From a virus, in the IMG/VR virus record IMGVR_UViG_3300021142_000171, positions 1 to 24,602 of that record: a stretch of 24,602 nucleotides of DNA; one strand, written 5' to 3'. Of this stretch, positions 6,935 to 17,071 are shown piece by piece; the stretch's first letter is position 1; every line of letters starts with the position of its first letter. Both the position numbers and the translations under genes were made by a program. The notes below the pieces were generated by a model. It had not been told where the DNA came from and did not search any database. It worked only from the letters and a program-made list of their open reading frames with translations.

Positions 6935-6958
6935 GAAAAGAGCGAACTTATTTTTATT

Positions 6959-6997
6959 GGCGTGTAGCTCAAACGATTAACATCTTACGTTAATCAC
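6959..6997 (+). pseudogene. Truncated tRNA, Lys(CTT)-like 5' part
   Basis: GGCGTGT, then TAGCTCAA as in D-arms, then a 7-bp stem GATTAAC/GTTAATC around a loop ATCTTAC (anticodon CTT). The second half of the D-arm is deleted and no T-arm follows; a late promoter begins at 7001 instead. First of the half-tRNA/endonuclease modules. Confidence 0.5.
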
Positions 6998-7000
6998 TAT

Positions 7001-7008
7001 TATAAATA
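7001..7008 (+). promoter_or_regulatory. T4-type late promoter
   Basis: TATAAATA, 31 nt before the HNH start. Confidence 0.75.
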
Positions 7009-7038
7009 TAGTTGACATTATCAATAATGGAGGCTATA

Positions 7039-7422
7039 ATGGTAGGAACAAACGCACAACTAGTCAAAGATTGGCGTGTAAGAAATAAAGAGCGCATGGT
7101 AAAATGCATGGGTGGCAAGTGTCAAATATGTGGATATTCTAAATCAAATAGAGCTTTAGAATTTCATCATATTGAACCTGCAACAAAAAGTTTTGGATTT
7201 GGTGCTGTCAGAGGAAACAATAAAGGTTGGGATTCGACAGCAGCAGAACTAAAAAAATGTATATTGTTATGTTCTAACTGTCATATGGAAGTTGAGGATG
7301 GTATATCAATGATACCAGAATCGTATGCAAAATTTGATGATACTATAAATGAAGAAATTAAGGCATACAGAAAAGAATCTAGTGCCAAAAACGTAAAACG
7401 TTCCTCAGTAGCTCAGGGGTAG
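7039..7422 (+). CDS. HNH homing endonuclease
   Basis: 127 residues. The HNH core reads CQICGY, then RALEFHHIEP with the catalytic His pair, then KKCILLCSNCHMEVE, which holds the second zinc CxxC-type pair and last His. The start at ATG 7039 is 5 nt after GGAGG; in-frame starts at 7012 and 7027 are less well placed. The last 21 bases, including the TAG stop, lie inside the tRNA-Asn gene, so the C-terminus (SSVAQG) is encoded by the tRNA acceptor stem and D-arm. It is probably a free-standing homing endonuclease targeting tRNA DNA. Confidence 0.9.
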   Translation: MVGTNAQLVKDWRVRNKERMVKCMGGKCQICGYSKSNRALEFHHIEPATKSFGFGAVRGNNKGWDSTAAELKKCILLCSNCHMEVEDGISMIPESYAKFDDTINEEIKAYRKESSAKNVKRSSVAQG

Positions 7423-7476
7423 AGCGACGAGCTGTTAACTCGTTGGTCGGTGGTTCGATCCCATCCTGAGGAGCCA
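7402..7476 (+). tRNA. tRNA-Asn(GTT)
   Basis: Full cloverleaf with acceptor TCCTCAG/CTGAGGA and anticodon loop CTGTTAA. G73 and CCA are encoded. The 5' 21 nt overlap the HNH gene. Confidence 0.95.
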
Positions 7477-7480
7477 ATTC

Positions 7481-7554
7481 GGGCTGTTAGTTAAATGGGA
7501 TAACGGTAGCTTTGCAAGCTTCAATTGAGAGTTCGATTCTCTCACGGTCCACCA
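7481..7554 (+). tRNA. tRNA-Ala(TGC), first copy
   Basis: Acceptor GGGCTGT/ACGGTCC with two wobble pairs, anticodon loop TTTGCAA, one mismatch in the anticodon stem, T-loop TTCGATT, CCA encoded. More degenerate than the second Ala(TGC) at 7685. Confidence 0.85.
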
Positions 7555-7559
7555 TTTTC

Positions 7560-7645
7560 GGGTAGTGAGTAGCACAGGTGACTACAGCAGACTGTAAATC
7601 TGCCGTCTTATGACATACTTGGTTCGACTCCAAGACTACCCACCA
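7560..7645 (+). tRNA. tRNA-Tyr(GTA)
   Basis: Class II tRNA with a long variable arm. Acceptor GGGTAGT/ACTACCC, anticodon stem GCAGA/TCTGC with loop CTGTAAA, CCA encoded. Confidence 0.95.
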
Positions 7646-7671
7646 ATTTCATTTTACTTCTTATTTATTTT

Positions 7672-7689
7672 TTAGTTTAGCTTTGGGGG
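7672..7689. repeat. 18-bp direct repeat spanning a tRNA 5' end (copy 1)
   Basis: TTAGTTTAGCTTTGGGGG occurs here, before tRNA-Ala(TGC), and again at 9310-9327 before tRNA-Lys(TTT). Shared flanks like this suggest past recombination between tRNA genes. Confidence 0.9.
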
Positions 7690-7760
7690 ATTAGCTCATT
7701 TGGTAGAGCAATAGCTTTGCAAGCTATGGGTGAACGGTTCGAATCCGTTATCCTCCACCA
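7685..7760 (+). tRNA. tRNA-Ala(TGC), second copy
   Basis: Acceptor GGGGGAT/ATCCTCC, anticodon stem ATAGC/GCTAT with loop TTTGCAA, T-loop TTCGAAT, CCA encoded. Canonical. Confidence 0.95.
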
Positions 7761-7832
7761 AACAAACGTAGTTGTCTACGTAAAAGAAGCTGCTCCAGTC
7801 AGTTTCAAACGACAACAACTGGAATATTTTAT

Positions 7833-7907
7833 GGTCCCATCGTCTAGCGGTAAGGATTGGAGATTTTCACTCTCTCGACAGGGGTTCGATTCCCCTTGGG
7901 ACTACCA
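7833..7907 (+). tRNA. tRNA-Glu(TTC)
   Basis: Acceptor GGTCCCA/TGGGACT, anticodon loop TTTTCAC, T-stem AGGGG/CCCCT, CCA encoded. Confidence 0.95.
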
Positions 7908-7955
7908 TTTTTGATTCTAAATTTTACCTTTAATGGTAAGAAAAGTAAAAGGAGA

Positions 7956-7998
7956 TGGGGCAAGTCTATGACTTTATAAGCCTAGACCATATACCCCA
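7956..7998 (+). ncRNA. Two-tier hairpin after tRNA-Glu
   Basis: Outer stem TGGGG/CCCCA and inner stem GTCTA/TAGAC are separated by small internal loops. It lies in the gene-free gap 7908-8273 and may be a processing or termination signal after the first tRNA group. Confidence 0.4.
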
Positions 7999-8054
7999 CC
8001 TGCCATTCTTTTAAGACTAATGTAACTCATTGATTATACAAAAGAATTTTTGAT

Positions 8055-8083
8055 TTGACTATTACATAGTTCTTCCGTATAAT
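8055..8083 (+). promoter_or_regulatory. Promoter
   Basis: TTGACT, 17 nt, TATAAT, preceded by GAATTTTTGA and a TAACTCATTGATT motif. Confidence 0.8.
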
Positions 8084-8116
8084 GTATCGTATAGTTTGAA
8101 ATTACTTGAGGTATTT

Positions 8117-8182
8117 AAGGGGAGCTTAATCTCCTATAAGAATAAGCGTAGCGATACGCCCAAAGCAGTAACCCCCTTTTAC
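8117..8182 (+). ncRNA. Candidate structured leader RNA
   Basis: It contains GGAG-CTTAAT-CTCC (8121-8134), the stem GCGTA/TACGC closed by a GCGA tetraloop (8146-8159), and a possible alternative pairing of AAGGGG (8117-8122) with CCCCTT (8173-8178). It lies about 30 nt after a strong promoter and 90 nt before the lipoprotein gene. Unrecognised. Confidence 0.4.
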
Positions 8183-8237
8183 GGGTCTGCGCCTAATAAA
8201 TTATGGGGTAGAAAGCCCAAGTTTGACCCAATTCCAT

Positions 8238-8245
8238 GATAAATA
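8238..8245 (+). promoter_or_regulatory. Possible late promoter variant
   Basis: GATAAATA, 28 nt before the lipoprotein start. First base differs from TATAAATA. Confidence 0.45.
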
Positions 8246-8273
8246 CGTGGAACCAAAACACAAGGATTCCACT

Positions 8274-8405
8274 ATGAAAAAGAATGAAATTATTTCTATA
8301 ATTGCTGCTGCTCTGATTGTAGGCACGTTGATCGTACTCTCATCATGCGCAAAGTCTCCTGTAGAACTTCGTGATAATAAAACTACTATAGCAATTAATA
8401 ATTGA
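8274..8405 (+). CDS. Small lipoprotein, 43 aa
   Basis: A lipoprotein signal MKKNEIISIIAAALIVGTLI ends in the lipobox LSSC; the mature part is only about 18 residues (CAKSPVELRDN and on). It should be lipid-anchored in the envelope of a Gram-negative host. AAGGA lies 7 nt before the ATG. Small phage lipoproteins are often involved in superinfection exclusion or lysis, but nothing here decides between them. It lies between a promoter/structured leader and tRNA-Lys(CTT). Confidence 0.8.
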   Translation: MKKNEIISIIAAALIVGTLIVLSSCAKSPVELRDNKTTIAINN

Positions 8406-8411
8406 TTTATT

Positions 8412-8488
8412 GGGTTCTTAGCTCAACTGGCTAGAGCATTCGACTCTTACTCGACAGGTTCAGGGTTCGACTCCCTGAGAACCCACCA
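8412..8488 (+). tRNA. tRNA-Lys(CTT)
   Basis: Acceptor GGGTTCT/AGAACCC, anticodon loop CTCTTAC, T-stem CAGGG/CCCTG, CCA encoded. One weak outer pair in the anticodon stem. Confidence 0.93.
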
Positions 8489-8506
8489 AGTTAAAAGGAT
8501 AATCTT

Positions 8507-8836
8507 ATGAGTGAAGACCTTGATAAAATTTTAAATGAACTGAGTCAAACTCAAGCAGAGTACGAAAAGAAGTACGATGAAGAATGCGAGTCTTTTTGGA
8601 ATGGACTTTCTCAGGATGATAAACTAATGGCTTTTTATTCTGTTGTTAAGAGAGTTCATGAGAATGATGTGAAGGTTCGTGGAACTTATCGTTACGGTCT
8701 ATATCATATTTTTGGTTTTGGTCCCGTATCTTATGGTATTGGTATGATGTGTGGATACATGGATATTCATAATTTGATTTTTGATGGAATGGAGAAGAAT
8801 AAAGATTCTTCAGAGTTTGATTTTACGGGATCGTAG
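8507..8836 (+). CDS. Conserved hypothetical phage protein
   Basis: 109 residues. A charged helical N-terminus is followed by FWNGLSQDDKLMAFYSVVKR and a YRYGLYHIFGFGPVSYGIGM segment, then MDIHNLIFDGME. I think it belongs to an uncharacterised family of T4-like phages but cannot name it. AAAGGA precedes the ATG. The last codons and the TAG stop fall inside the truncated tRNA at 8827, so the present C-terminus may have been altered by that rearrangement. Confidence 0.8.
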   Translation: MSEDLDKILNELSQTQAEYEKKYDEECESFWNGLSQDDKLMAFYSVVKRVHENDVKVRGTYRYGLYHIFGFGPVSYGIGMMCGYMDIHNLIFDGMEKNKDSSEFDFTGS

Positions 8837-8852
8837 CTCAGTGGTAGAGCAG
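8827..8852 (+). pseudogene. Truncated tRNA, 5' acceptor and D-arm only
   Basis: GGGATCG, TA, then the complete D-arm GCTC-AGTGGTA-GAGC and A26. The sequence then turns into AT-rich DNA with a late promoter at 8861. No matching 3' half exists downstream. The amino acid cannot be told. Confidence 0.8.
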
Positions 8853-8860
8853 TATTATTT

Positions 8861-8868
8861 TATAAATA
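8861..8868 (+). promoter_or_regulatory. T4-type late promoter
   Basis: TATAAATA, 9 bases after the tRNA break and 25 bases before the HNH start. Confidence 0.8.
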
Positions 8869-8892
8869 GGTTTACCCATTAGGAGAAATACT

Positions 8893-9318
8893 ATGCCTGT
8901 TTATAAAACCTTTAATTGTATTAATTGTGGAAAATTGAATGAGAAGAAACCGAATACATCTGGCAAATATTGTGACAATAAATGTCAACAGGATTTTCAA
9001 TCCAAACAGATTCTTGAATCTTGGAAAAAAGATCACAAAAAAGGTATTGGTGCAAACTTTAGGTTAAAAACCCCAATTAGAAAATTTATATTTGATAAAT
9101 TTGATAATAAATGCTGTCAATGTGGTTGGTGTGAAGTGAATAAAAATTCTAATTGTATTCCTCTAGAAATAGACCATATTGATGGGGATTGTCTTAATAA
9201 TAAAGAAGAAAATTTAAGATTATTATGTCCTAATTGTTATTCACTCACTTCGACATATAAAGCTCTTAATAGAGGTAAAGGTAATAAAAGCAGGTTAAAA
9301 TATTATAAATTAGTTTAG
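8893..9318 (+). CDS. HNH homing endonuclease with N-terminal zinc finger
   Basis: 141 residues. The N-terminus has two Cys pairs (CINCGK and CDNKC), a probable small zinc finger for DNA binding. The HNH core follows: CCQCGW, LEIDHIDGDCLNN, NLRLLCPNCYSLT, with a basic tail. AGGAG lies 7 nt before the ATG. It is inserted between a broken tRNA and intact tRNA-Lys(TTT), which starts 5 bases after its stop. Its late promoter implies expression late in infection. Confidence 0.92.
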   Translation: MPVYKTFNCINCGKLNEKKPNTSGKYCDNKCQQDFQSKQILESWKKDHKKGIGANFRLKTPIRKFIFDKFDNKCCQCGWCEVNKNSNCIPLEIDHIDGDCLNNKEENLRLLCPNCYSLTSTYKALNRGKGNKSRLKYYKLV

Positions 9319-9327
9319 CTTTGGGGG
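9310..9327. repeat. 18-bp direct repeat (copy 2)
   Basis: Identical to 7672-7689; spans the end of the HNH gene and the first bases of tRNA-Lys(TTT). Confidence 0.9.
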
Positions 9328-9399
9328 TATAACTCAGTTGGCTAGAGTAACGGTCTTTTAAACCGTAAGTCCTGGGTTCGAATCCCAGTGCCCCCACCA
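9323..9399 (+). tRNA. tRNA-Lys(TTT)
   Basis: Acceptor GGGGGTA/TGCCCCC, anticodon stem ACGGT/ACCGT with loop CTTTTAA, T-loop TTCGAAT, CCA encoded. Confidence 0.96.
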
Positions 9400-9411
9400 A
9401 TTTTAAAAGTT

Positions 9412-9512
9412 GCGTCAGCGTAACAGGAGTAAGCATTGAGTGGTCGATTCCACTCCTTCTGATCAATGCCTCTGGTGAGGAATGGCTGAAAGATTAAGCG
9501 AGACGCGCCGTT
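9412..9512 (+). other. tRNA debris and hairpins
   Basis: GTTGCG-TCAG-CGTAAC hairpin (about 9414-9429), then GCATTGA/TCAATGC (about 9434-9470) enclosing GTGG-TCGATT-CCAC. From about 9474, GGTGAGG with a GGCTGAAAGATTAAGC-like D-arm resembles the 5' part of a Ser/Leu tRNA. No complete cloverleaf can be drawn. Probably decayed tRNA sequence; a functional RNA is not excluded. Confidence 0.45.
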
Positions 9513-9516
9513 TTAT

Positions 9517-9594
9517 CTGGGTGTAGCTCAGTTTGCGCAGAGTGCTTGCCCTGGAAGCAAGAGGTCGCTGGTTCAAATCCAGCCATCCAGACCA
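9517..9594 (+). tRNA. tRNA-Pro(TGG)-like with C33
   Basis: Acceptor CTGGGTG/CATCCAG with C1-G72 and A73, typical of tRNA-Pro. The anticodon stem CTTGC/GCAAG is perfect, but the loop CCTGGAA has C instead of the usual T at position 33. CCA is encoded. A canonical Pro(TGG) lies at 10358, so this copy may be redundant or drifting. Confidence 0.75.
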
Positions 9595-9603
9595 GATTTT
9601 TAT

Positions 9604-9697
9604 GCTCCTATAGTTTAATGGTAGAACAACGGCCTTATACTCCGTCTCGGCGCCAGATTAGCGCACAGTACAGGTTCGAATCCTGTTGGGAGCACCA
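9604..9697 (+). tRNA. tRNA-Ile(TAT) with an inserted variable-region hairpin
   Basis: Acceptor GCTCCTA/TGGGAGC, D-arm GTTT/GAAC, anticodon loop CTTATAC in a 4-bp stem, T-stem ACAGG/CCTGT, CCA encoded. Between the anticodon and T-arms are 24 nt instead of about 5, containing GCGC-CAGATTA-GCGC. Ile tRNAs are normally class I with a short variable loop. Confidence 0.75.
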
Positions 9698-9763
9698 CAT
9701 ATATACTAAGAAGTTTTCGTGATGTGATTGTGAAACTATGTTAGGTAACAAAGGTAAGAAAAT

Positions 9764-10339
9764 ATGAAGAATGTAATTTTGGCTCTTGTCGCTTCGGTTG
9801 CTCTTGCTGGTACAGCAGTTGCTGGTGAATACGCTGGTATTGATTACCAGAGTAAGCAGCGTTCTGGTGTAGATGAACAGCATGATGTTCTTGGTGTATC
9901 TGTTGGCGCAACTCTTGGGACTAAGCTTTATGCTGAAGGTCGTATGGAAGAAGAAATTGTCCATAATCCCTCAAAGCATGAAGGACTAGCTCAGGTTAAG
10001 TTGGGTTGGAATGTGCTTTCGTGGCATAAGCTAACTCCATATGTTGCTGGAGCAGTTGGTTATAAGAGCAAGGCTACAAGCAACTTCGACTATTATGTGG
10101 TTGAAGGTGGTCTTAAGTATCCTCTGTTTGCTAATCTAGATGTAAGTGCTGCTTCTCGATTGCGTTCACCATTTGGTGAGAGTTCAATGGGCGGAGCAGA
10201 TGCGTATCGCACAGTTGAAAACAGTCTTGGTGTCAAGTTCAAGTTGGACTCTAAGAATGCCGTAACTGCCAAGTACGCATATGAGCACGGTGATCGTGAT
10301 TATCATACTTGGGGTGTTGGATACGTTCATTCGTTCTAA
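9764..10339 (+). CDS. Outer-membrane beta-barrel protein (porin-like)
   Basis: 191 residues. The signal peptide MKNVILALVASVALAGTAVA has a likely cleavage site after AVA. The mature part alternates polar and hydrophobic residues (VLGVSVGATLGTKLYAEGRM, AQVKLGWNVLSW, YYVVEGGLKYPLF, GVKFKLDSKNAVTAKYAYEH) and ends in HSF. A terminal Phe is the usual signal for Bam-mediated insertion of outer-membrane barrels. About eight strands fit the length. A phage gene of this kind could mask or replace a receptor and block superinfection, or change permeability. It sits alone between tRNA-Ile and tRNA-Pro. Confidence 0.85.
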   Translation: MKNVILALVASVALAGTAVAGEYAGIDYQSKQRSGVDEQHDVLGVSVGATLGTKLYAEGRMEEEIVHNPSKHEGLAQVKLGWNVLSWHKLTPYVAGAVGYKSKATSNFDYYVVEGGLKYPLFANLDVSAASRLRSPFGESSMGGADAYRTVENSLGVKFKLDSKNAVTAKYAYEHGDRDYHTWGVGYVHSF

Positions 10340-10357
10340 GGTAAATAGTAGAAATTT

Positions 10358-10434
10358 CGGGGCATAGCTCAGTCTGGTAGAGCACCTGCTTTGGGAGCAG
10401 GGTGTCAAGTGTTCGAATCACTTTGTCCCGACCA
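10358..10434 (+). tRNA. tRNA-Pro(TGG)
   Basis: Acceptor CGGGGCA/TGTCCCG with C1-G72, anticodon stem CCTGC/GCAGG with loop TTTGGGA, A73, CCA encoded. Confidence 0.96.
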
Positions 10435-10450
10435 ACTTTAAGGAGTAAAT

Positions 10451-10561
10451 ATGTTAGAATTTCTAGCTGGAGTTGTTGTTGGAGCAGTAGTAACAGTTCT
10501 TGTTCCTGCTGTATATTCTTGGCTTAAAAAGCAGACCGACTCTGCGAAGAGTAAGCTGTAA
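10451..10561 (+). CDS. 36-aa single-span membrane protein
   Basis: MLEFLAGVVVGAVVTVLVPA followed by VYSWLKKQTDSAKSKL: one hydrophobic helix with small residues, then a basic amphipathic tail. AGGAG lies 5 nt before the ATG. No family is recognised. Confidence 0.7.
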   Translation: MLEFLAGVVVGAVVTVLVPAVYSWLKKQTDSAKSKL

Positions 10562-10600
10562 CAAAAACGGGGGTGAAGAAACAAAAACGGGGGTGAAGAA
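10561..10600. repeat. Perfect 20-bp tandem duplication
   Basis: ACAAAAACGGGGGTGAAGAA occurs twice head to tail. The second copy forms the 5' arm of the hairpin at 10590-10609, so the left arm of a terminator has been duplicated. Confidence 0.95.
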
Positions 10601-10612
10601 ATTCACCCCTTT
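10590..10612 (+). terminator. Terminator-like hairpin
   Basis: GGGGTGAA-GAAA-TTCACCCC is a perfect 8-bp stem with a GAAA tetraloop, followed by TTT. It sits between the small membrane protein gene and tRNA-Trp. The short T run makes termination weak, so it may instead be a processing site. Confidence 0.55.
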
Positions 10613-10614
10613 GT

Positions 10615-10688
10615 GCCCCGCTAGCATAGTGGTAATGTCGCAGTCTCCAAAACTGCTGATGGGGGTCCGATTCCCTCGCGGGGTGCCA
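10615..10688 (+). tRNA. tRNA-Trp(CCA)
   Basis: Acceptor GCCCCGC/GCGGGGT, anticodon stem GCAGT/ACTGC with loop CTCCAAA, G73, CCA encoded. Confidence 0.95.
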
Positions 10689-10701
10689 CCCGATTTTATA
10701 T

Positions 10702-10779
10702 GCCCCCATAGCTCAGTGGAATCAGAGCGCAACGCTACGGACGTTGATGTCGGAGGTTCAATTCCTTCTGGGGGTGCCA
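10702..10779 (+). tRNA. tRNA-Arg(ACG)
   Basis: Acceptor GCCCCCA/TGGGGGT, anticodon stem CAACG/CGTTG with loop CTACGGA, CCA encoded. A34 would normally be deaminated to inosine by the host TadA enzyme. Confidence 0.95.
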
Positions 10780-10789
10780 AAGTTTTATT

Positions 10790-10865
<76 letters not shown>

Positions 10866-10879
10866 TTTTATGGGATACC

Positions 10880-10894
10880 ACCTCCCTTAGAGGT
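10880..10894 (+). promoter_or_regulatory. Hairpin covering a ribosome-binding site
   Basis: ACCTC-CCTTA-GAGGT. The right arm is the Shine-Dalgarno sequence of the methyltransferase gene at 10899, so the fold would hide it. Confidence 0.4.
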
Positions 10895-10898
10895 TGTC

Positions 10899-11525
10899 AT
10901 GCATTCAAGCGCATTTGATATTGGAAAATTGTTTTTTGATACCTATATCGCAGGTGATCATCCTGTTAAAGTAATAGATGTCGGTTCTCAAAATATAAAC
11001 GGAACACTTAAGTCACATATTACTAAAAATGTAACTTCTTATGTTGGTGCGGATTTTGAAGCTGGTAATGGTGTAGATGTTGTTCTTGAGGATTCTTACA
11101 AATTTCCTTTTGAGAATAACACGTTTGATGCTCTAGTAACATCTTCTTGTTTTGAACATTCTGAAATGTTTTGGTTGACTTTTCTTGAGGGAATGCGAGT
11201 TCTAAAGCCAGATGGATTAATGTATATTAATGCTCCGTCGTCATGGCATTACCATCGTCATCCTTATGATTGTTGGAGATTCTTTCCAGACGCAGGAAAA
11301 GGTTTGGAAACTTGGGCAAGGTATAGTAAAATACAGGCTAGAGTTCTTGAAACATTTATTTTTAATCAGACAGATTGGGTTTGTGTCTTTATTAAAGATG
11401 AAAACTATATGGATCTTTTTCCAAATAGAATGTTAGATAGTTTGGTGTATAGAAAACAGTTTACAAAAGGTTTTAGATTTCCTGCCAGCGGCCCGTTTGA
11501 TGGTACATGGCAGAATCCAGTTTAA
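10899..11525 (+). CDS. Class I SAM-dependent methyltransferase (type 11-like)
   Basis: 208 residues. Motif I is VKVIDVGSQNINGTL (about residues 23-37). An acidic residue ends the next strand in YVGADFE (about 47-53). Then come DVVLEDSYKFPFENNTFDAL (about 59-78) and the motif IV-V region CFEHSEMFWLTFLEGMRVLK followed by PDG. This is the usual Methyltransf_11 order. The C-terminus, with HYHRHPYDCWRFFPD, is typical of sugar or small-molecule methyltransferases. The substrate is unknown; the nearby glycosyltransferase makes glycan or nucleotide-sugar modification plausible. The ribosome site lies in a small hairpin. Confidence 0.85.
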   Translation: MHSSAFDIGKLFFDTYIAGDHPVKVIDVGSQNINGTLKSHITKNVTSYVGADFEAGNGVDVVLEDSYKFPFENNTFDALVTSSCFEHSEMFWLTFLEGMRVLKPDGLMYINAPSSWHYHRHPYDCWRFFPDAGKGLETWARYSKIQARVLETFIFNQTDWVCVFIKDENYMDLFPNRMLDSLVYRKQFTKGFRFPASGPFDGTWQNPV

Positions 11526-11528
11526 TAT

Positions 11529-11603
11529 GCTCGGTTAGCTCAGAGGCAGAGCGTCGCGTTTACACCGCGAATGTCGGGGTTTCGAAATCCTCACCGAGTA
11601 CCA
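11529..11603 (+). tRNA. tRNA-Val(TAC), first copy
   Basis: Acceptor GCTCGGT/ACCGAGT, anticodon stem TCGCG/CGCGA with loop TTTACAC. The T-stem has one mismatch next to a TTCGAAA loop. CCA encoded. Confidence 0.9.
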
Positions 11604-11703
11604 AGTTGCCATTGAAAAGGGAGCCAAGAATAAAGGTTCTGGAAGAAAGTTGAGTCCGAATAAAAATGGCAGTTGGTTACTTGAAAAAGTAAAGTAAGTT
11701 TTT
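11604..11703 (+). other. Unassigned inter-tRNA stretch
   Basis: One frame is open to TAA at about 11697 and ends KNKGSGRKLSPNKNGSWLLE then KVK, but no start codon or ribosome site precedes it. It runs back into tRNA-Val. It looks like the tail of a lost gene. Confidence 0.35.
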
Positions 11704-11779
11704 GCTTGCATCATATAATGGCTGAATATGATTGCCCGATTGGCGATTCATCTAGGTTCGAATCCTAGTGCAAGCACCA
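11704..11779 (+). tRNA. Atypical tRNA, anticodon uncertain (GAT by position)
   Basis: Acceptor GCTTGCA/TGCAAGC and T-arm CTAGG-TTCGAAT-CCTAG are perfect and CCA is encoded. The D-stem is all A-T (ATAT/ATAT). The anticodon stem ATTGC/GCGAT has loop CCGATTG, with C33 and a possible C32-G38 pair. By position the anticodon is GAT (Ile), but the loop is not normal. It may be a decaying or recombined tRNA. Confidence 0.55.
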
Positions 11780-11782
11780 AGT

Positions 11783-11930
11783 TTTGATGTGGCTCGCGTA
11801 AACCTTAGCGGGTATGACGCTTTGTTGTGATGCTCTGAATGTATACTAATACTTTCATTCAGGCTACAGATTGGAAATTCCAGTAATGAGATATTTTTCA
11901 ATATTTCATTCAATAGTAAACCACATCAAA
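11783..11930 (+). ncRNA. Candidate structured RNA closed by a 10-bp stem
   Basis: TTTGATGTGG (11783-11792) is the exact reverse complement of CCACATCAAA (11921-11930). Inside are CTGAATG/CATTCAG around a 14-nt loop, TGGAA-A-TTCCA, and GAGATATT/AATATTTC with one bulge. There is no reading frame inside. It lies between the odd tRNA and tRNA-Asp. No known RNA family is recognised. Confidence 0.5.
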
Positions 11931-11940
11931 TTTATTTTTC

Positions 11941-12018
11941 GGCTCTGTAGCATAGCTGGCCTAATGCGCTTGCCTGTCACGCAAGAGATCACGGGTTCAA
12001 ATCCCGTCAGAGTCGCCA
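11941..12018 (+). tRNA. tRNA-Asp(GTC)
   Basis: Acceptor GGCTCTG/CAGAGTC, anticodon stem CTTGC/GCAAG with loop CTGTCAC, T-stem ACGGG/CCCGT, G73, CCA encoded. Confidence 0.96.
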
Positions 12019-12032
12019 ATTTTGGAGTAGTT

Positions 12033-12347
12033 ATGACGAAAAAGTTTACGTATGATGATTTACAGCCCAGAGTTGAGATGTTAATTGAAGCTCTGGAAAA
12101 TAAAGGGTCTTGTGCTAGCGGACTACCATATAACAATGGTGTAGTTGAATATGCTCAAGATTACAGAGATCTACTTGAAATTATTAGACAAAAACAAACT
12201 ACGGAAGAACTGCTTACTCAAGCGTTATCTCTTACTAAAATGATGACGCTCTATAAAGCTGGAAAGAATCAGCTAGATAGAATTCGTAAAATTGTTGAGG
12301 CACTTGATGAATGTATGCTTAAGGAGTTTAAAAAGTATAATATATAA
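12033..12347 (+). CDS. Hypothetical helical protein, 104 aa
   Basis: MTKKFTYDDLQPRVEMLIEA followed by long helices (LLEIIRQKQTTEELLTQALS, IRKIVEALDECMLKEFKK). It is probably all-alpha. GGAG lies 5 nt before the ATG. The frame is open upstream through tRNA-Asp, but that part is not coding. No family is recognised. First of a three-gene group with the ParB-like and glutaredoxin genes. Confidence 0.75.
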   Translation: MTKKFTYDDLQPRVEMLIEALENKGSCASGLPYNNGVVEYAQDYRDLLEIIRQKQTTEELLTQALSLTKMMTLYKAGKNQLDRIRKIVEALDECMLKEFKKYNI

Positions 12348-12370
12348 TGGTATCTTGAAGAGATTACAAA

Positions 12371-12922
12371 ATGAATTCATACAGAGACGCTCAACAATTA
12401 TTTTCAAATACTGACTATGAAATATCCCATTTTATTAAGCACTTGGGTATTAGAAAGTCTGAATCTGTTCTTAGAAAAGTACAATCAATTATAGAACAAT
12501 CCAGATTGGAAACTTTGAATAGTAACAATATTGGTTTGATTAAAAATCTGGTAAATGATATAATTGATAGTGAGACGTTCATCAAACTTGAACAAATTAG
12601 ACAGTGTTCAAATTATGCTAATGACCTCATTCCTATTATGAATGAAAGAGATATACAGCATAATGTAAGACGATATAATCCAATCAAGGATTTGGTGTTT
12701 CACTTTAAAAACGGAAGATATGATCCTCCTGTTCTTTTGATTACACCTAATGGTTTTTATGTTGTTTCTGGTAGAACAAGATTGATGATCGCTTGGGCTT
12801 TAAACAAACCTATTGCGGTCAAAGTTTTAAATAAAAAGAGTTTTAGAAAATTAATAGTTAAAGAATCTGAGGAGAACAATTATGTTGACGATTTACACCA
12901 AACCAGCATGTCCAGCATGTGA
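12371..12922 (+). CDS. ParB/sulfiredoxin-like domain protein
   Basis: 183 residues. The N-terminal part is helical. Residues about 96-150 read NPIKDLVFHFKNGRYDPPVL, then GFYVVSGRTRLMIAWALNKP, then IAVKVL. This pattern (strand, x-V-x-x-G-R-x-R, helix, strand) is that of ParB N-terminal/sulfiredoxin-fold domains, which bind nucleotides and in some members hydrolyse CTP or DNA. I see no helix-turn-helix partner. GAAGAGA precedes the ATG. The last 41 bases overlap the glutaredoxin gene, so the two are coupled. Confidence 0.7.
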   Translation: MNSYRDAQQLFSNTDYEISHFIKHLGIRKSESVLRKVQSIIEQSRLETLNSNNIGLIKNLVNDIIDSETFIKLEQIRQCSNYANDLIPIMNERDIQHNVRRYNPIKDLVFHFKNGRYDPPVLLITPNGFYVVSGRTRLMIAWALNKPIAVKVLNKKSFRKLIVKESEENNYVDDLHQTSMSSM

Positions 12923-13133
12923 GAGGGTCAAACATTATTTGACCACTAATAATATTCAGTTTGAAACTGTTGATATTACACAGGACGCTAACGCAAAGCA
13001 GTTTATGATAGAAAGTGGATATCGTATGGTTCCTCAGATTTTTAATGATGGTAAGATTTTTGTCGAAGGTGGTGCTATAGGATTGATGGCTTTAACACCA
13101 GCTCAGATAAAGAATATGTTGACTAATAAATAA
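12882..13133 (+). CDS. Glutaredoxin
   Basis: 83 residues, the full size of a small glutaredoxin. The active site CPAC is at about residues 9-12 after MLTIYTKP, the cis-proline is in MVPQIF (about residues 50-55), and the glycine pair is in FVEGGAIGL. It reduces disulfides with glutathione or thioredoxin reductase. In T4 the equivalent supports ribonucleotide reductase; no reductase gene is in this window. It starts inside the end of the ParB-like gene after GAGGAG, with good spacing. Confidence 0.92.
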   Translation: MLTIYTKPACPACERVKHYLTTNNIQFETVDITQDANAKQFMIESGYRMVPQIFNDGKIFVEGGAIGLMALTPAQIKNMLTNK

Positions 13134-13144
13134 TAAGGTATTAT

Positions 13145-13219
13145 GCGGGAATAGCTCAGTGGTAGAGCAACGCTTTTACACGGCGAAGGTCGGCGGTTCA
13201 ATCCCGTCATCGCGTACCA
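13145..13219 (+). tRNA. tRNA-Val(TAC), degenerate second copy
   Basis: D-arm GCTC/GAGC, anticodon loop TTTACAC and T-arm GGCGG-TTCAATC-CCGTC are clear. The acceptor GCGGGAA against ATCGCGT has two mismatches and one wobble, and the anticodon stem has one mismatch. CCA encoded. Possibly non-functional. Confidence 0.65.
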
Positions 13220-13224
13220 AGTTT

Positions 13225-13260
13225 GCCCGATTAGCTCAAAAGTAGAGCGCACGACTGATC
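13225..13260 (+). pseudogene. Truncated tRNA-Ile(GAT), broken at the anticodon
   Basis: Acceptor GCCCGAT, complete D-arm GCTC/GAGC, anticodon-stem 5' strand CACGA, then CTGATC, which ends just after the anticodon GAT. The 3' half is absent. A late promoter starts 7 bases later. The endonuclease that follows is succeeded by an intact but different tRNA-Ile(GAT) at 13883. Confidence 0.8.
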
Positions 13261-13266
13261 TATTTG

Positions 13267-13274
13267 TATAAATA
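13267..13274 (+). promoter_or_regulatory. T4-type late promoter
   Basis: TATAAATA, 27 bases before the endonuclease start. Confidence 0.8.
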
Positions 13275-13300
13275 AAATACTATACATCTGGAGAAGTTAA

Positions 13301-13903
13301 ATGTTAAATTGTAAATTTTGTCGTAAAGAATATAGCACTGCAACTGGAAAAGGCTTACATGAAGTTCAATGTAAATTGAACCCAGAAAGCAGAAATATCC
13401 AAAAGGGTAGATCTGCCTGGAATAAAGGACTAACCAAAGAAACAGATAGTAGAGTATTAAAAAATGCAAAATCTGTTCAAGAAACTTGGACTCCTCGTGG
13501 TGCTGTTTTATTGAGTTCAAAACAACTTTCTGATAAAGCCAAAGCACAAGGATTTGGCGGATACAGAGAAAATGCTGGTAGAAGTAAGAAATTCAAAGTT
13601 GTAGATTCTTTCGGCAAAGTAACAACATTACAAAGTTCATACGAACTAAGATGCTTTCAAATTTTACAAGAGCTAAACATATCTTGGATTAGACCAAAAG
13701 CATTAAAGTATGACGAGAGAAACTATTTCGCAGATTTTTATTTGACTGAATATGACATATATCTTGATCCGAAAAATAAGCATAAAGCAAAAATTGATAC
13801 AGATAAGATAAACAAGGTCATTCAACAAAACAATGTTAAATTGTATGTTCTATTAGAAGAACATTTAACAAAAGATTTCATTGCCTCTTTAGTTCAATGG
13901 TAG
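13301..13903 (+). CDS. Homing endonuclease, zinc finger plus PD-(D/E)XK-like core
   Basis: 200 residues. The N-terminus MLNCKFCRKEYSTATGKGLH and the Cys that follows look like a small zinc finger. GRSAWNKGLTKE resembles a NUMOD3-type DNA-binding repeat. The catalytic part has YELRCFQIL, then NYFADFYLTEYDIYLDPKNK, giving D-x(n)-D-P-K, the pattern of a PD-(D/E)XK or Vsr-like nuclease. GGAG lies 7 nt before the ATG. The last 21 bases (encoding ASLVQW and the stop) are inside tRNA-Ile(GAT). Confidence 0.82.
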   Translation: MLNCKFCRKEYSTATGKGLHEVQCKLNPESRNIQKGRSAWNKGLTKETDSRVLKNAKSVQETWTPRGAVLLSSKQLSDKAKAQGFGGYRENAGRSKKFKVVDSFGKVTTLQSSYELRCFQILQELNISWIRPKALKYDERNYFADFYLTEYDIYLDPKNKHKAKIDTDKINKVIQQNNVKLYVLLEEHLTKDFIASLVQW

Positions 13904-13956
13904 AACATAGTCCTGATAAGACTAAAACGGTGGATCGTAACCACCAAGAGGCACCA
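13883..13956 (+). tRNA. tRNA-Ile(GAT)
   Basis: Acceptor GCCTCTT/AAGAGGC, D-arm GTTC/GAAC, anticodon stem TAGTC/GACTA with loop CTGATAA, T-stem GGTGG/CCACC, CCA encoded. The T-loop is ATCGTAA: positions 54 and 58, normally T and A, are swapped to A and T. The 5' end overlaps the endonuclease gene. Confidence 0.9.
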
Positions 13957-13960
13957 ATTT

Positions 13961-14036
13961 GCCACTTTAGCTCAGTTGGTAGAGCACTTGCCTGAAGAGC
14001 AAGGTGTCCCCAGTTCGATTCTGGGAGGTGGTACCA
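13961..14036 (+). tRNA. tRNA-Phe(GAA), first copy
   Basis: Acceptor GCCACTT/AGGTGGT, anticodon stem CTTGC/GCAAG with loop CTGAAGA, T-stem CCCAG/CTGGG, CCA encoded. Shares 51 identical interior bases with the Phe tRNA at 15256. Confidence 0.95.
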
Positions 14037-14043
14037 AGTTTAT

Positions 14044-14100
14044 GACTCGTTAGCATAGTGGCGTAATGCACTCGGCTGTCGCCCGAGATATCATGGGTTC
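14044..14100 (+). pseudogene. Truncated tRNA-Asp(GTC), broken in the T-loop
   Basis: Acceptor GACTCGT, D-arm GCAT/ATGC, anticodon stem CTCGG/CCGAG with loop CTGTCGC, then ATGGG-TTC of the T-arm. The next bases continue a GIY-YIG gene instead of the rest of the T-loop. Only the last 16 or so bases of the tRNA body are missing. Confidence 0.9.
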
Positions 14101-14517
14101 TGGTAAAAGATTAAAAATAGCAATTAAAAAATATGGAATTGAAAATTTCACAAAAGAAATTTTGTATATATTTGACAATGAAGTTGATATGAGAAACAAA
14201 GAAAAAGAATTAGTTGTTATATCAGAAATGAGTTACAATTTGTGTGATGGTGGAAAGGGTGGGTTCGGATATATAAATCGTTCTGGTAAGGCTCTAAGAA
14301 CTGGAATGAAGCATTCAGAAGAATCTAAAAAGAAAATGGGTCATCCAGGAAAACCATCACCAGCAAAGGTAAGTTGTGGAGTCAAGAACAAAAAAATAGA
14401 CTTTCAGAGATTATGTCTAACGCATTAAGGGGTAAATCTAAAAGCGAAGAACATAAACGTAAAATTTCAGAGTCTGTTAAGCGTAAACATAAAGAAAGAA
14501 CTGCGGGTATGATGTAA
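14093..14517 (+). pseudogene. Decayed GIY-YIG homing endonuclease, 5'-truncated and frameshifted
   Basis: The surviving sequence begins MGSGKRLKIAIKKYGIENFT, the middle of a GIY-YIG domain; the GIY and YIG strands and catalytic Arg are gone. Next comes DMRNKEKELVVISEMSYNLC with the catalytic Glu and Asn, then NUMOD3-like repeats (TGMKHSEESKKKMGHPGK). A one-base deletion near 14368-14371 shifts the frame. The second frame continues LWSQEQKNRLSEIMSNALRG and KSKSEEHKRKISESVKRK to a TAA at 14515, inside tRNA-Gly. The upstream part is fused to tRNA-Asp through a shared ATGGGTTC. Confidence 0.88.
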
Positions 14518-14576
14518 TGGTAGCCTGGAACTTTGCCAAAGTTCGCGAACGAGTTCGATTCTCGTTACCCGCTCCA
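14503..14576 (+). tRNA. tRNA-Gly(GCC)
   Basis: Acceptor GCGGGTA/TACCCGC, anticodon stem GAACT/AGTTC with loop TTGCCAA, T-stem ACGAG/CTCGT, T73, CCA encoded. The 5' 15 bases overlap the GIY-YIG remnant. Confidence 0.93.
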
Positions 14577-14579
14577 CTG

Positions 14580-14621
14580 TAATGTACGATTCATATGGTG
14601 ATTTTAATGTACGATTCATAT
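14580..14621. repeat. 17-bp direct repeat at a gene start
   Basis: TAATGTACGATTCATAT at 14580-14596 and 14605-14621. It duplicates the first five codons (MYDSY) of the methyltransferase. The first copy leads to a short dead-end frame. Confidence 0.95.
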
Positions 14622-15188
14622 AGTAATTGGATTAACGTTTCAAAAACAAAAGATATCTCAAATCTTAAAAGTCTCATAACAGGTACTGAGCGTTGGGATT
14701 CTGACTATATTACAGATGATTGTAAAGCAATATTGAGTTCCTTTAAAGGAGCAGTGGTAGATTTTGGATGTGGTTTGGGTAGAAATGTTTCTATGTTGAA
14801 ATATTTCAACTGTAGAATAGTTGGATATGATATTCCAAACATGATTTCAAGATTGAAAAAAGTTGAATCCGCCGTGGCTAATTTATATGACGCATTATAC
14901 GATTCATTTGATTGTCTTTTGAAAAAGGAAGATCCGACAGTAATATATGAGAGTGTTGTGTTACAGCATATTGTAGATGGTAACTATATTAATATGTTAA
15001 ATTCAATAGCTGAAAAGCAGTCCGTTAAATTGTTTGTCAGTATAGCTAATTCTGGTGGATCCACTCGTCATATACCACATCTTTCAAATAGACCTTATTG
15101 GAAGCTGATACATAAAGAAGAAAACAATGTCACTTTCAATGTGACACATGATGTTTATGTTTTTGAGAAAATTGCTCCTATCGTCTAA
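14607..15188 (+). CDS. Class I SAM-dependent methyltransferase
   Basis: 193 residues. Motif I is GAVVDFGCGLGRNVSML (about residues 50-66). The acidic end of the next strand is in RIVGYDIPNM (about 70-79). Then come DPTVIYESVVLQHI (motif IV-like), VKLFVSIANSGGS and a C-terminal beta segment. The substrate is unknown. I prefer ATG 14607, 5 nt after GGTGA, to the in-frame ATG at 14595. The last 15 bases, encoding APIV and the TAA, lie inside tRNA-Glu(CTC). Confidence 0.83.
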   Translation: MYDSYSNWINVSKTKDISNLKSLITGTERWDSDYITDDCKAILSSFKGAVVDFGCGLGRNVSMLKYFNCRIVGYDIPNMISRLKKVESAVANLYDALYDSFDCLLKKEDPTVIYESVVLQHIVDGNYINMLNSIAEKQSVKLFVSIANSGGSTRHIPHLSNRPYWKLIHKEENNVTFNVTHDVYVFEKIAPIV

Positions 15189-15251
15189 AAAGGCAAGGAC
15201 CCCCGTTTCTCAAGTGGGATAATATCGGTTCGAATCCGATTAGGAGCGCCA
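15174..15251 (+). tRNA. tRNA-Glu(CTC)
   Basis: Acceptor GCTCCTA/TAGGAGC, Glu/Gln-type D-arm (GTCTA and AGGAC), anticodon stem CCCGT/GTGGG with wobble pairs and loop TTCTCAA, T-stem TCGG/CCGA, G73, CCA encoded. The 5' end overlaps the methyltransferase stop. Confidence 0.88.
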
Positions 15252-15255
15252 TTAT

Positions 15256-15331
15256 GCCGTTTTAGCTCAGTTGGTAGAGCACTTGCCTGAAGAGCAAGGT
15301 GTCCCCAGTTCAACTCTGGGAAACGGTACCA
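15256..15331 (+). tRNA. tRNA-Phe(GAA), second copy
   Basis: Acceptor GCCGTTT/AAACGGT, anticodon loop CTGAAGA. Bases 15261-15311 are identical to 13966-14016 in the first Phe tRNA, while the acceptor stem has changed on both sides with pairing kept. T-loop TTCAACT, CCA encoded. Confidence 0.93.
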
Positions 15332-15339
15332 ATTTCGAT

Positions 15340-15415
15340 GGTGACTGTAGATCAATGGTAGATCCCTGGATTGTGATTCCAGTCGTTGTGGGTTCGAGTC
15401 CCATCAGTCACCCCA
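15340..15415 (+). tRNA. tRNA-His(GTG)
   Basis: Acceptor GTGACTG/CAGTCAC with the extra G-1 (15340) facing C73, the hallmark of tRNA-His. Anticodon stem CTGGA/TCCAG with loop TTGTGAT, CCA encoded. Confidence 0.95.
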
Positions 15416-15433
15416 AATTTATTAGGGGTTTTT

Positions 15434-15580
15434 ATGGCAGCAAAGAATGATATTACTGGAGACAATATTCGCAGTAAGATAAGTAATCAGAAAGCTTACG
15501 GTGATGGTTGGGAACGTATCTTTGGTAAGAAGAAAGGTAAAAAGAAAAAGGTCTTAGAAACAAAAAGAACATTCAATTGA
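15434..15580 (+). CDS. Small basic hypothetical protein, 48 aa
   Basis: MAAKNDITGDNIRSKISNQK, then AYGDGWERIFGKKKGKKKKV and a basic end. The N-terminal DITGD...I.SK pattern reminds me of a small uncharacterised protein of T4-like phages. The Lys-rich tail suggests nucleic-acid contact. AGGGG lies 6 nt upstream. The TGA stop is formed by the first three bases of tRNA-Gln(CTG). Confidence 0.7.
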   Translation: MAAKNDITGDNIRSKISNQKAYGDGWERIFGKKKGKKKKVLETKRTFN

Positions 15581-15651
15581 GAGATCGTCTAACGGCAGGA
15601 CGCAAGACTCTGACTCTTGCTATCTAGGTTCGAATCCTAGTCTCTCAACCA
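15578..15651 (+). tRNA. tRNA-Gln(CTG)
   Basis: Acceptor TGAGAGA/TCTCTCA, anticodon stem CAAGA/TCTTG with loop CTCTGAC, T-stem CTAGG/CCTAG, CCA encoded. A truncated near-copy of its 5' end is at 16376. Confidence 0.93.
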
Positions 15652-15666
15652 TTTTATAGGATTGTT

Positions 15667-16374
15667 ATGGATATTAAAAATGTAAATCTGAACAAATACT
15701 GTCATAATGCTTTTGGCTATGTCGAAGGTTGGTGCGAATGGAAGTTATTTGAGGTGTTTGATTTTCTTGATTCATTACCAGTAAACAAGTCTGGTGGCAT
15801 CTGTGAGATTGGTGTTCATCATGGTAAGTTTTACATGATGTTGAATCAGTTAGTTGAAGAAAATGAAAAATCTTATGCCGTAGATGTATTTGAAAATCAG
15901 CACTTGAATATTGATTCATCTGGTCAAGGTAATAAAGATGCTTTTCTATATAATCTTGAATTGTATGATAAGTTCAATGGTACAAACACAATAGTTGTTA
16001 CGGCTGATTCTACTGATACTTCGATTAAGTTAAATAATATCATCAAGCCTGGAACTTTAAAGTTCTTTTCTATTGATGGTGGTCATACAGCAGAACATAC
16101 TATTAACGATCTTCATATAGCAAATGAGCTTATAAATAATGAAGGTATAGTGATCGTAGACGATATAAGTAATCACGGTTGGCTAGGAGTAATGGAAGGA
16201 GTGTGTAAGTATATTCAGACATATCCTACATTAGTTCCAGTTGCCGTTGGATTTAACAAAATGTTATTTGTAAAATTGTCTTTTAAAGAGTATTATTATA
16301 ATGCCTTTAACGGATTTGGTCTTAAAGACAAAGAATCTAAATTCTTTGGTCATAAGATAATTGTATTGAGTTAA
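15667..16374 (+). CDS. Class I SAM methyltransferase (Methyltransf_24-like)
   Basis: 235 residues. Motif I is GGICEIGVHHGKFYMML (about residues 42-58). SYAVDVFENQ carries the acidic ribose-binding position (about 69-78). The diagnostic segment is LKFFSIDGGHTAEHTINDLH followed by INNEGIVIVDDISNHGW. The D-G-x-H and V-D-D-x pattern marks the metal-assisted O-methyltransferase/Methyltransf_24 family, often acting on sugars. It is bracketed by tRNA-Gln(CTG) and a truncated copy of that tRNA, so it looks like cargo captured by a duplicated tRNA end. AGGA lies 5 nt before the ATG. Confidence 0.83.
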   Translation: MDIKNVNLNKYCHNAFGYVEGWCEWKLFEVFDFLDSLPVNKSGGICEIGVHHGKFYMMLNQLVEENEKSYAVDVFENQHLNIDSSGQGNKDAFLYNLELYDKFNGTNTIVVTADSTDTSIKLNNIIKPGTLKFFSIDGGHTAEHTINDLHIANELINNEGIVIVDDISNHGWLGVMEGVCKYIQTYPTLVPVAVGFNKMLFVKLSFKEYYYNAFNGFGLKDKESKFFGHKIIVLS

Positions 16375-16375
16375 T

Positions 16376-16399
16376 TGAGAGATCGTCTAAAGGCAGGAC
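16376..16399 (+). pseudogene. Truncated tRNA-Gln(CTG), 5' acceptor and D-arm
   Basis: It matches the first 24 bases of the tRNA-Gln at 15578 with a single C-to-A change in the D-loop, and the match extends a few bases upstream. It stops exactly after GGCAGGAC. The HNH gene starts 11 bases later, and the tRNA's own AGGA is the only ribosome-site candidate for it. Confidence 0.9.
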
Positions 16400-16409
16400 T
16401 AAATACAGC

Positions 16410-16964
16410 ATGGCAACAAGTAAAAATATTGATTCAACTCAACTTAAAGAACTACACGAGAATGGTCTTACCACTTCTGACATAGCAAAAACATTAGGCA
16501 TAGCAGCTTCTACAGTCGTTTACTGGAAAAAGAAATTAGATATCAAATTATCACCAAATAAACATGATTGGAAGAAAATACAGGAAGCGCATGACAACGG
16601 TGCATCTTATACCAAATTATATGAAATGTTTGGAGTATGTAAACGTTCATTACAAAATGCAAGGAATCGCGGAGATTTCAAAGTAAGACAAATACCAAAA
16701 GTACCTAAGGAACATCGTCGAGCAAAACAAAGAGAAAATTGGGCTAGGTATCATGCTAAAAAGAAATATAATACTCCGCACGACGAAGATCTCACAGCTA
16801 TAAAAGAATTTTATAAGAACTGTCCAGAGAGATATGAAGTAGATCATATCATACCAATTTCCAGAGGTGGTAAACATTCTATTTCTAACTTGCAATACTT
16901 AACAATATCTGAAAACAGGAGCAAAGGTAACAAAATTATTGAAGCCAAGCAAAGTAATGTATAA
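16410..16964 (+). CDS. HNH homing endonuclease with helix-turn-helix domain
   Basis: 184 residues. Residues about 9-45 (TQLKELHENGLTTSDIAKTL and on) form a resolvase-like helix-turn-helix, followed by a possible second one (about 50-85: WKKIQEAHDNGASYTKLYEM). The C-terminal HNH core reads PERYEVDHIIPISRGGKHSI, then SNLQYLTISENRSKGNK, with the catalytic His, Asn and last basic residues but no zinc Cys. ACTAAATAC just upstream is only a weak late-promoter match. It is inserted after a half tRNA-Gln(CTG) and followed 24 bases later by tRNA-Gln(TTG). Confidence 0.9.
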   Translation: MATSKNIDSTQLKELHENGLTTSDIAKTLGIAASTVVYWKKKLDIKLSPNKHDWKKIQEAHDNGASYTKLYEMFGVCKRSLQNARNRGDFKVRQIPKVPKEHRRAKQRENWARYHAKKKYNTPHDEDLTAIKEFYKNCPERYEVDHIIPISRGGKHSISNLQYLTISENRSKGNKIIEAKQSNV

Positions 16965-16988
16965 TTAATAATACTGAGACGATACAGA

Positions 16989-17062
16989 TCACCTGTAGTT
17001 TAATGGTAGAACGTTGGACTTTGAATCCAACTATCCTCGTTCGAGTCGAGGCGGGTGATCCA
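16989..17062 (+). tRNA. tRNA-Gln(TTG)
   Basis: Acceptor TCACCTG/CGGGTGA, D-arm GTTT/GAAC, anticodon stem TTGGA/TCCAA with loop CTTTGAA, T-stem CCTCG/CGAGG. CCA encoded after an unusual T73. Confidence 0.9.
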
Positions 17063-17071
17063 TGTCCCTCA

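What the first reader, a model, noticed from the sequence alone, without database searches (positions are those of the whole stretch)
6959..16964. Recurrent modules: half-tRNA, then late promoter, then homing endonuclease, then intact tRNA
Four times (6959, 8827, 13225, 16376) a tRNA 5' fragment stops abruptly and a nuclease gene follows within about 10-45 bases, ending just before or inside an intact tRNA. Three of the four carry TATAAATA right after the break. The nucleases differ (HNH with zinc, HNH with HTH, PD-(D/E)XK-like) and so do the break points: after the anticodon arm, after the D-arm, in the anticodon loop. No 3' halves exist, so these are not introns. It looks like a general capture mechanism in which the tRNA is sacrificed and a neighbouring tRNA of the same or similar type is kept.
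Basis: partly seen in the sequence, partly recalled or inferred. Interest (0 to 1): 0.8.

Follow-up and report, generated by a model that had tools for sequence, protein, structure and literature searches.

The report
Nuclease genes carrying replacement phage tRNAs
In many bacterial viruses a selfish DNA-cutting gene sits inside a tRNA gene, broken at or near its anticodon, and is followed by a different, intact tRNA for the same codon, so the virus appears to be invaded and repaired in one step.

Summary
The pattern is real and widespread, but the intact tRNA is not a spared neighbour. A scan of IMG/VR for half tRNAs followed by the late promoter TATAAATA gave 77 contigs; all have a broken tRNA and 62 carry a nuclease-like ORF there. 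Of 47 non-redundant modules (window and L005 included), 41 have an intact tRNA at the ORF end. Two two-sided allele pairs settle the anatomy: in L107/L106 (Thr-TGT) and in cultured kutterviruses ST-W77/PhaxI (Met-CAT), the native tRNA keeps its 5' part, its 3' part is replaced by a nuclease plus a different tRNA with the same anticodon, and homology resumes at the CCA end. A near-identical relative of the window (L005) shows the same at Ser-TGA, left side only. Apostate and AsFcp_1 carry clean anticodon insertions with both halves and no substitute. In the window, three of four halves are supported, 6959 is not, and a fifth, damaged module lies at 14044-14576. Best reading: free-standing homing nucleases that target tRNA anticodon arms and carry a recoded replacement tRNA, a natural home-and-rescue arrangement. 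Cleavage and rescue are inferred. T-even phages with the downstream Arg tRNA but no nuclease complicate the picture.

The parts
6959..7000 (+). possible decayed 5' tRNA half of module 1 (weak)
   Evidence: score 13, not above shuffles (maximum 17)
7001..7008 (+). late promoter TATAAATA of module 1
   Evidence: exact match
7039..7422 (+). HNH nuclease gene of module 1
   Evidence: Pfam HNH 6e-6, phrog_35854 5e-35
7402..7476 (+). intact tRNA-Asn(GTT), presumed substitute; ORF end overlaps it by 21 bases
   Evidence: ARAGORN, Rfam 65 bits
8827..8860 (+). 5' tRNA half of module 2, break in a T-run consistent with the anticodon loop
   Evidence: score 21 against shuffle maximum 14
8861..8868 (+). 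late promoter TATAAATA of module 2
   Evidence: exact match
8893..9318 (+). zinc-binding HNH nuclease gene of module 2
   Evidence: phrog_10822 2e-17; HNH_3 4e-4, below the curated cut-off
9323..9399 (+). intact tRNA-Lys(TTT), presumed substitute
   Evidence: ARAGORN, Rfam 73 bits
13225..13260 (+). 5' half of tRNA-Ile(GAT), break just after the anticodon
   Evidence: sequence ..GACTGATC|; score 19 against shuffle maximum 13
13267..13274 (+). late promoter TATAAATA of module 3
   Evidence: exact match
13301..13903 (+). zinc-finger + PD-(D/E)XK homing-type nuclease gene of module 3
   Evidence: family profile hits T7 endonuclease I 3.5e-7 and I-Bth0305I 1.5e-4; model pLDDT 83.5; I-Bth0305I Z 8.6
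13883..13956 (+). intact tRNA-Ile(GAT), presumed substitute; ORF end overlaps it by 21 bases
14044..14100 (+). tRNA-Asp(GTC) 5' part, broken in the T-arm and fused to the nuclease remnant through ATGGGTTCTGG
   Evidence: Rfam 26.6 bits, below gathering; fusion site read from sequence
14066..14428 (+). degraded GIY-YIG nuclease gene of module 5
   Evidence: phrog_314 4e-25; about 14088-14500 is 74% identical to the intact Gly module of L084
14503..14576 (+). tRNA-Gly(GCC), presumed substitute of module 5
   Evidence: same order in L084: Gly half, GIY-YIG, Gly(GCC)
16376..16399 (+). 5' half of a tRNA-Gln, break after the D-arm
   Evidence: 96% identical over 24 bases to Gln(CTG) 15578-15601; score 22 against shuffle maximum 13
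16410..16964 (+). HTH-HNH nuclease gene of module 4
   Evidence: HTH_23 2.8e-8, HNH 2.9e-7
16989..17062 (+). intact tRNA-Gln(TTG), presumed substitute
17173..17263 (+). intact tRNA-Ser(TGA): in relative L005 this site holds a half, late promoter, nuclease and a different Ser(TGA)
   Evidence: L005 99.97% identical up to window 17192, then half, nuclease 6825-7436, Ser(TGA) 7441-7531

Best explanation
Each module is a free-standing homing-nuclease cassette made of a late promoter, a nuclease gene and a complete tRNA gene of the same specificity as the tRNA it breaks. SHOWN by sequence: the native tRNA gene is interrupted in or near its anticodon arm; in two allele pairs with both flanks its 3' part is exchanged for the nuclease plus a tRNA with the same anticodon and a different body; the nuclease ORF usually runs into that tRNA, often ending on the TAG of its positions 8-10. 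INFERRED: the nuclease cuts intact relatives of the broken tRNA gene in co-infecting phages; recombination-dependent repair copies the cassette in; the new tRNA restores decoding and, because its D-arm and stems are recoded, is not cut. Clean insertions that keep both halves look like the simpler state, without a substitute.
For: L107 (empty) versus L106 (filled): flanks match on both sides, break after U33 of Thr(TGT), homology back at GCACCA; the tRNA after the nuclease is another Thr(TGT). Ten of the 11 loci with a tRNA at this site have one intact Thr(TGT). ST-W77 versus PhaxI: flanks 99.1% and 98.8% identical, Met(CAT) broken, different Met(CAT) imported, homology resumes at CACCA. Window versus L005 at Ser(TGA), left side only. 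47 non-redundant modules, 41 with an adjacent intact tRNA; in 29 of the 41 the ORF overlaps the tRNA. The half's best-matching isotype equals that of the following tRNA in 20 of 41; label shuffles mean 6.0, maximum 15 in 10,000. Nearest-relative nucleases share tRNA isotype in 18 of 39; shuffles mean 4.9, maximum 15. Following tRNAs lack the usual GCTCA D-stem: 4 of 29 have it against 78 of 117 for the same five isotypes, Fisher p 3.6e-7; stratified over nine isotypes odds ratio 0.19, chi2 17.2.
Against: No cleavage, homing or tRNA function was measured. In T-even phages KIT01 and fPSFA the Arg(TCT) that follows the nuclease in IME341 (and segB in T4) is present without any nuclease, so there it may be older than the nuclease, or the nuclease was lost. 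L056/L068/L077 have a Thr half and nuclease but no tRNA; L063 and L042 do not fit cleanly. The anticodon of module tRNAs is unique in its contig in 39 of 41, but the baseline is already 89%, so uniqueness is no evidence of rescue. The scan pattern required a canonical D-arm in the half, which may bias the D-arm comparison. Half identity rests on similarity except in the allele pairs.
Confidence: 0.72

Rival explanations
1. The nuclease gene (with a half tRNA as its left flank or operator) lands just upstream of a cognate tRNA that was already there; the intact tRNA is a spared neighbour.
For: KIT01 and fPSFA carry Ile then Arg(TCT) with no nuclease, while IME341 has a partial Arg half and nuclease between the same two tRNAs.
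Against: In L107/L106 and ST-W77/PhaxI the empty relative has only one tRNA at the site, and it differs from the one after the nuclease. ORFs run into the tRNA in most modules.
Confidence: 0.15
2. The modules are domesticated: nucleases help phages acquire or amplify tRNAs that resist host anticodon nucleases, and the recoded tRNA is selected for that rather than as a repair of the nuclease's own damage.
For: SegB amplifies a tRNA-Tyr segment and lets T6 escape the Septu defence (PMC13096335). The substitute tRNAs are recoded.
Against: It does not predict that a tRNA of the same isotype is broken at the same spot, nor clean insertions without any new tRNA.
Confidence: 0.1
3. The halves and nucleases are independent debris in crowded tRNA arrays, brought together by chance recombination.
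For: tRNA arrays are recombination-rich; module 5 shows what looks like a microhomology deletion fusing Asp to a nuclease remnant.
Against: Recurrent order in 47 non-redundant modules, isotype agreement far above shuffles, and precise alleles in cultured phages.
Confidence: 0.03

Closest known systems
T4/T6 SegB, free-standing GIY-YIG homing endonuclease in the T-even tRNA cluster (PMC13096335; Brok-Volchanskaya 2008, cited there)
   Same: Nuclease gene in a tRNA array; in T4 a late-promoter-like site upstream and tRNA-Arg right after it; cuts tRNA-containing DNA; drives inheritance and amplification of tRNA genes.
   Different: In T4 no half tRNA lies upstream of segB, and replacement of a broken tRNA by a same-specificity one was not described in the passages read.
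Mobile endonuclease ORFs (mORFs) of fungal mitochondria carrying a foreign gene end, e.g. Allomyces atp6, Glomus atp6/atp9/cox2/nad3 (PMC3630166)
   Same: A free-standing nuclease breaks a gene and carries a diverged replacement for the displaced part.
   Different: Protein genes; only the C-terminal part is replaced, upstream of the nuclease. Here a whole tRNA gene lies downstream and the displaced 5' half stays upstream.
Group I intron homing endonucleases in tRNA anticodon loops
   Same: Anticodon-arm target, nuclease-driven spread (general knowledge).
   Different: Nuclease ORF lies almost flush with the tRNA halves, no room for a ribozyme; no Rfam intron hit in the window.
Integrase attachment sites in tRNA genes
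   Same: tRNA gene broken or duplicated in the anticodon region.
   Different: Those carry an integrase; 10 such contigs turned up in the scan and are separable.
Synthetic home-and-rescue / cleave-and-rescue gene drives (PMC7968924, listed)
   Same: Cut a needed gene and supply a recoded, uncut copy.
   Different: Engineered; here cutting and resistance are only inferred.

Membership tests
Free-standing phage homing endonuclease genes | nuclease domain of a known homing class (HNH, GIY-YIG, PD-(D/E)XK) | tested here: met
   Pfam/PHROG hits for the window genes and relatives; PD-(D/E)XK by profile and fold
Free-standing phage homing endonuclease genes | present in some and absent in other relatives at the same site | tested here: met
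   L106/L107, PhaxI/ST-W77, Apostate/Stupor, AsFcp_1/avDM12
Free-standing phage homing endonuclease genes | cuts the empty allele and is over-inherited in crosses | not testable with these tools
   needs enzyme assays and co-infections
Group I intron-encoded homing endonucleases | self-splicing intron around the ORF joining two exons | tested here: not met
   no intron family in the Rfam scan of the window, no 3' exon in the window
Integrase attachment sites | adjacent integrase | tested here: not met
   window modules hold HNH, GIY-YIG or PD-(D/E)XK genes
SegB-type tRNA-region elements | GIY-YIG SegB homologue next to a tRNA | tested here: inconclusive
   only module 5 has a GIY-YIG remnant; not compared with a SegB profile

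The most novel reading that the evidence does not exclude
A natural cleave-and-rescue drive in viruses: several unrelated nuclease families have converged on the anticodon arm of tRNA genes and each carries a recoded, cut-resistant tRNA that replaces the one it destroys, so that co-infection both spreads the nuclease and turns over the phage's tRNA set.
Probability: 0.45. Interest if true: 0.85.

Novelty: new variant of a known kind. Interest (0 to 1): 0.72.

Why it matters
It would explain why homing nucleases crowd phage tRNA arrays, why those arrays hold tRNA fragments and oddly built tRNAs, and how phage tRNA repertoires turn over. It also gives named allele pairs in cultured phages (PhaxI and ST-W77) with which the idea of a natural home-and-rescue element can be tested directly.

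Tried and rejected
Intron: rejected for the window (no 3' exon, no ribozyme hit). Integrase attachment site: rejected for the window, although 10 pattern hits are such sites. A 5'-half-restoring cassette (a cassette-borne 5' half rebuilding the tRNA with the native 3' half): in most modules the upstream half's acceptor strand does not pair with the following tRNA's 3' strand; L025, L039 and L082 pair 7/7, so it is not excluded for those. Uniqueness of the anticodon as evidence of rescue: dropped, since the baseline is already 89%. A first all-against-all blast for empty sites was swamped by cross-matching tRNAs and was replaced by length-filtered hits and a neighbour-gene scan. Aeromonas phage avDM12-TAAL and a Lak phage, hit by the L005 nucleases, were fetched; the Lak locus was not analysed further. 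Literature: nine searches of an open-access library returned no paper whose listing, or the passages I read, described nuclease-carried replacement tRNAs; subscription papers are mostly missing from that library.
Full report
What the window is. A 24.6 kb virus record from IMG/VR, with 33 tRNAs found by ARAGORN and T4-type late promoter sequences. No near relative is in the named phage collection, but two contigs are nearly identical to it.

Check of the observation. Four nuclease genes lie just before or into intact tRNAs, as described. TATAAATA occurs six times in the window, three of them straight after the putative halves. Three halves score above every shuffle of the same segment; the one at 6959 does not. 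A fifth unit was missed: the 5' part of tRNA-Asp (14044-14100) is fused, through the shared string ATGGGTTCTGG, to a degraded GIY-YIG gene whose DNA is 74% identical to an intact module in L084 made of Gly half, GIY-YIG gene and Gly(GCC). I read this as a Gly module damaged by a later deletion.

The pattern elsewhere. A DNA pattern for a canonical D-arm followed within 30 bases by TATAAATA hit 77 viral contigs. None of the matched sites lies in an intact tRNA. Ten are attachment sites beside an integrase gene, three end before an ORF, two carry an ORF of unknown function, and 62 carry a nuclease-like ORF. After collapsing nucleases at 90% identity, and adding the window's four modules and two from L005, there are 47 modules, 41 with an intact tRNA at the ORF end. 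In 29 of these 41 the ORF overlaps the tRNA (three of them placed by eye because ARAGORN misses the tRNA); nine overlap by exactly 10 bases, and in eight of those the stop codon is the TAG at tRNA positions 8-10. Nuclease classes include HNH, GIY-YIG and PD-(D/E)XK. The class of the module 3 gene is supported by a structure model (mean pLDDT 83.5) whose C-terminal domain aligns with I-Bth0305I and Vsr at Z about 8.5; such Z values alone can mean a common arrangement, but the sequence profile agrees.

Alleles with and without. (1) The contig of L005 is 99.97% identical to the window over 5667-17192 and then diverges inside tRNA-Ser(TGA): the window has the intact gene, L005 has a half, a late promoter, a nuclease and a different Ser(TGA), followed by a Leu half, a nuclease and Leu(TAG). 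Its right flank is not homologous to the window, so this pair is one-sided. (2) The gene downstream of the L028/L055 site was used to fetch 80 loci. Eleven of these have a tRNA site directly upstream of it: ten with a single intact Thr(TGT), one (L106, the same contig as L055) with half, nuclease and another Thr(TGT), read by eye. L107 and L106 align base by base: the break falls after U33, and homology resumes at GCACCA. (3) In cultured kutterviruses, ST-W77 has an intact Met(CAT); PhaxI has its first 27 or so bases, a nuclease, a different Met(CAT) and about 60 further bases, with flanks 99.1% and 98.8% identical. (4) Apostate against Stupor and AsFcp_1 against avDM12-TAAL show clean insertions in the anticodon of a CAT tRNA with both halves kept and no substitute next to it; L037, L062 and L073 keep a 3' half too.

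Statistics. The best-matching isotype of the half equals that of the following tRNA in 20 of 41 modules, against a shuffle mean of 6.0 and maximum of 15 in 10,000. Nearest-relative nucleases share isotype in 18 of 39, shuffle mean 4.9 and maximum 15. The following tRNAs have the usual GCTCA D-stem less often than other tRNAs of the same isotypes: 4 of 29 against 78 of 117 for Asn, Ile, Thr, Val and Lys; stratified over nine isotypes the odds ratio is 0.19. The halves were selected for a canonical D-arm by the pattern, the following tRNAs were not; still, a bias is possible.

How it most likely works. Shown: location, junctions, same anticodon, changed tRNA body. Inferred: cutting of intact alleles, repair from the filled genome, function of the substitute and its resistance to cutting. 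The late promoter fits the known late expression of T4 homing nucleases, and the half just upstream could serve as an operator, as the homing-site-like operator of I-TevI does (PMC2988022); this is an idea only.

What does not fit. T-even phages KIT01 and fPSFA have the Arg(TCT) that follows the nuclease in IME341 and segB in T4, but no nuclease. Either the nuclease was lost there, leaving the substitute behind, or the tRNA came first and the nuclease landed beside it. A few modules have no following tRNA.

Novelty. Free-standing homing nucleases in phage tRNA arrays are known, SegB best of all, and fungal mitochondrial nucleases that bring a replacement gene end are known. A nuclease gene carrying a whole same-specificity tRNA to replace the one it breaks was not found in the papers searched; that search was limited to an open-access library.

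Noticed in passing
window 21041-21742: Intact tRNA-Cys, then TATAAATA at 21141, then a strong HNH gene (21170-21742): a nuclease after a whole tRNA, without a half.
   Followed up: no
window 1491-1811: A small GIY-YIG gene outside the tRNA array.
   Followed up: no
L031, L035, L047, L060, L066, L070, L071, L072, L087, L088: Half tRNA-Val next to what reads as a tyrosine integrase gene: probable attachment sites rather than nuclease modules.
   Followed up: partly
L091 oriented - strand 3380-4162: Gln-like half, GIY-YIG gene, then a tRNA with a Leu-like long variable arm but anticodon TTG (Gln).
   Followed up: no
L042 and L061, after the GIY-YIG gene: The following tRNA seems to carry about 40 extra bases in its anticodon arm.
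   Followed up: no
L097 (phage WFK) and L099 (Klebsiella phage Shark_ER15), upstream of the nuclease: No half tRNA, but GTGCTCTATCC next to the late promoter, which reads as the reverse complement of a tRNA D-arm; possible operator.
   Followed up: no
L186 (phage IME13) after the nuclease ORF: A tRNA-like sequence ending in CCA that ARAGORN does not report.
   Followed up: no
window 11704-11779: tRNA called Ile(GAT) with a poor anticodon arm and low Rfam score (43 bits); its identity is doubtful.
   Followed up: no
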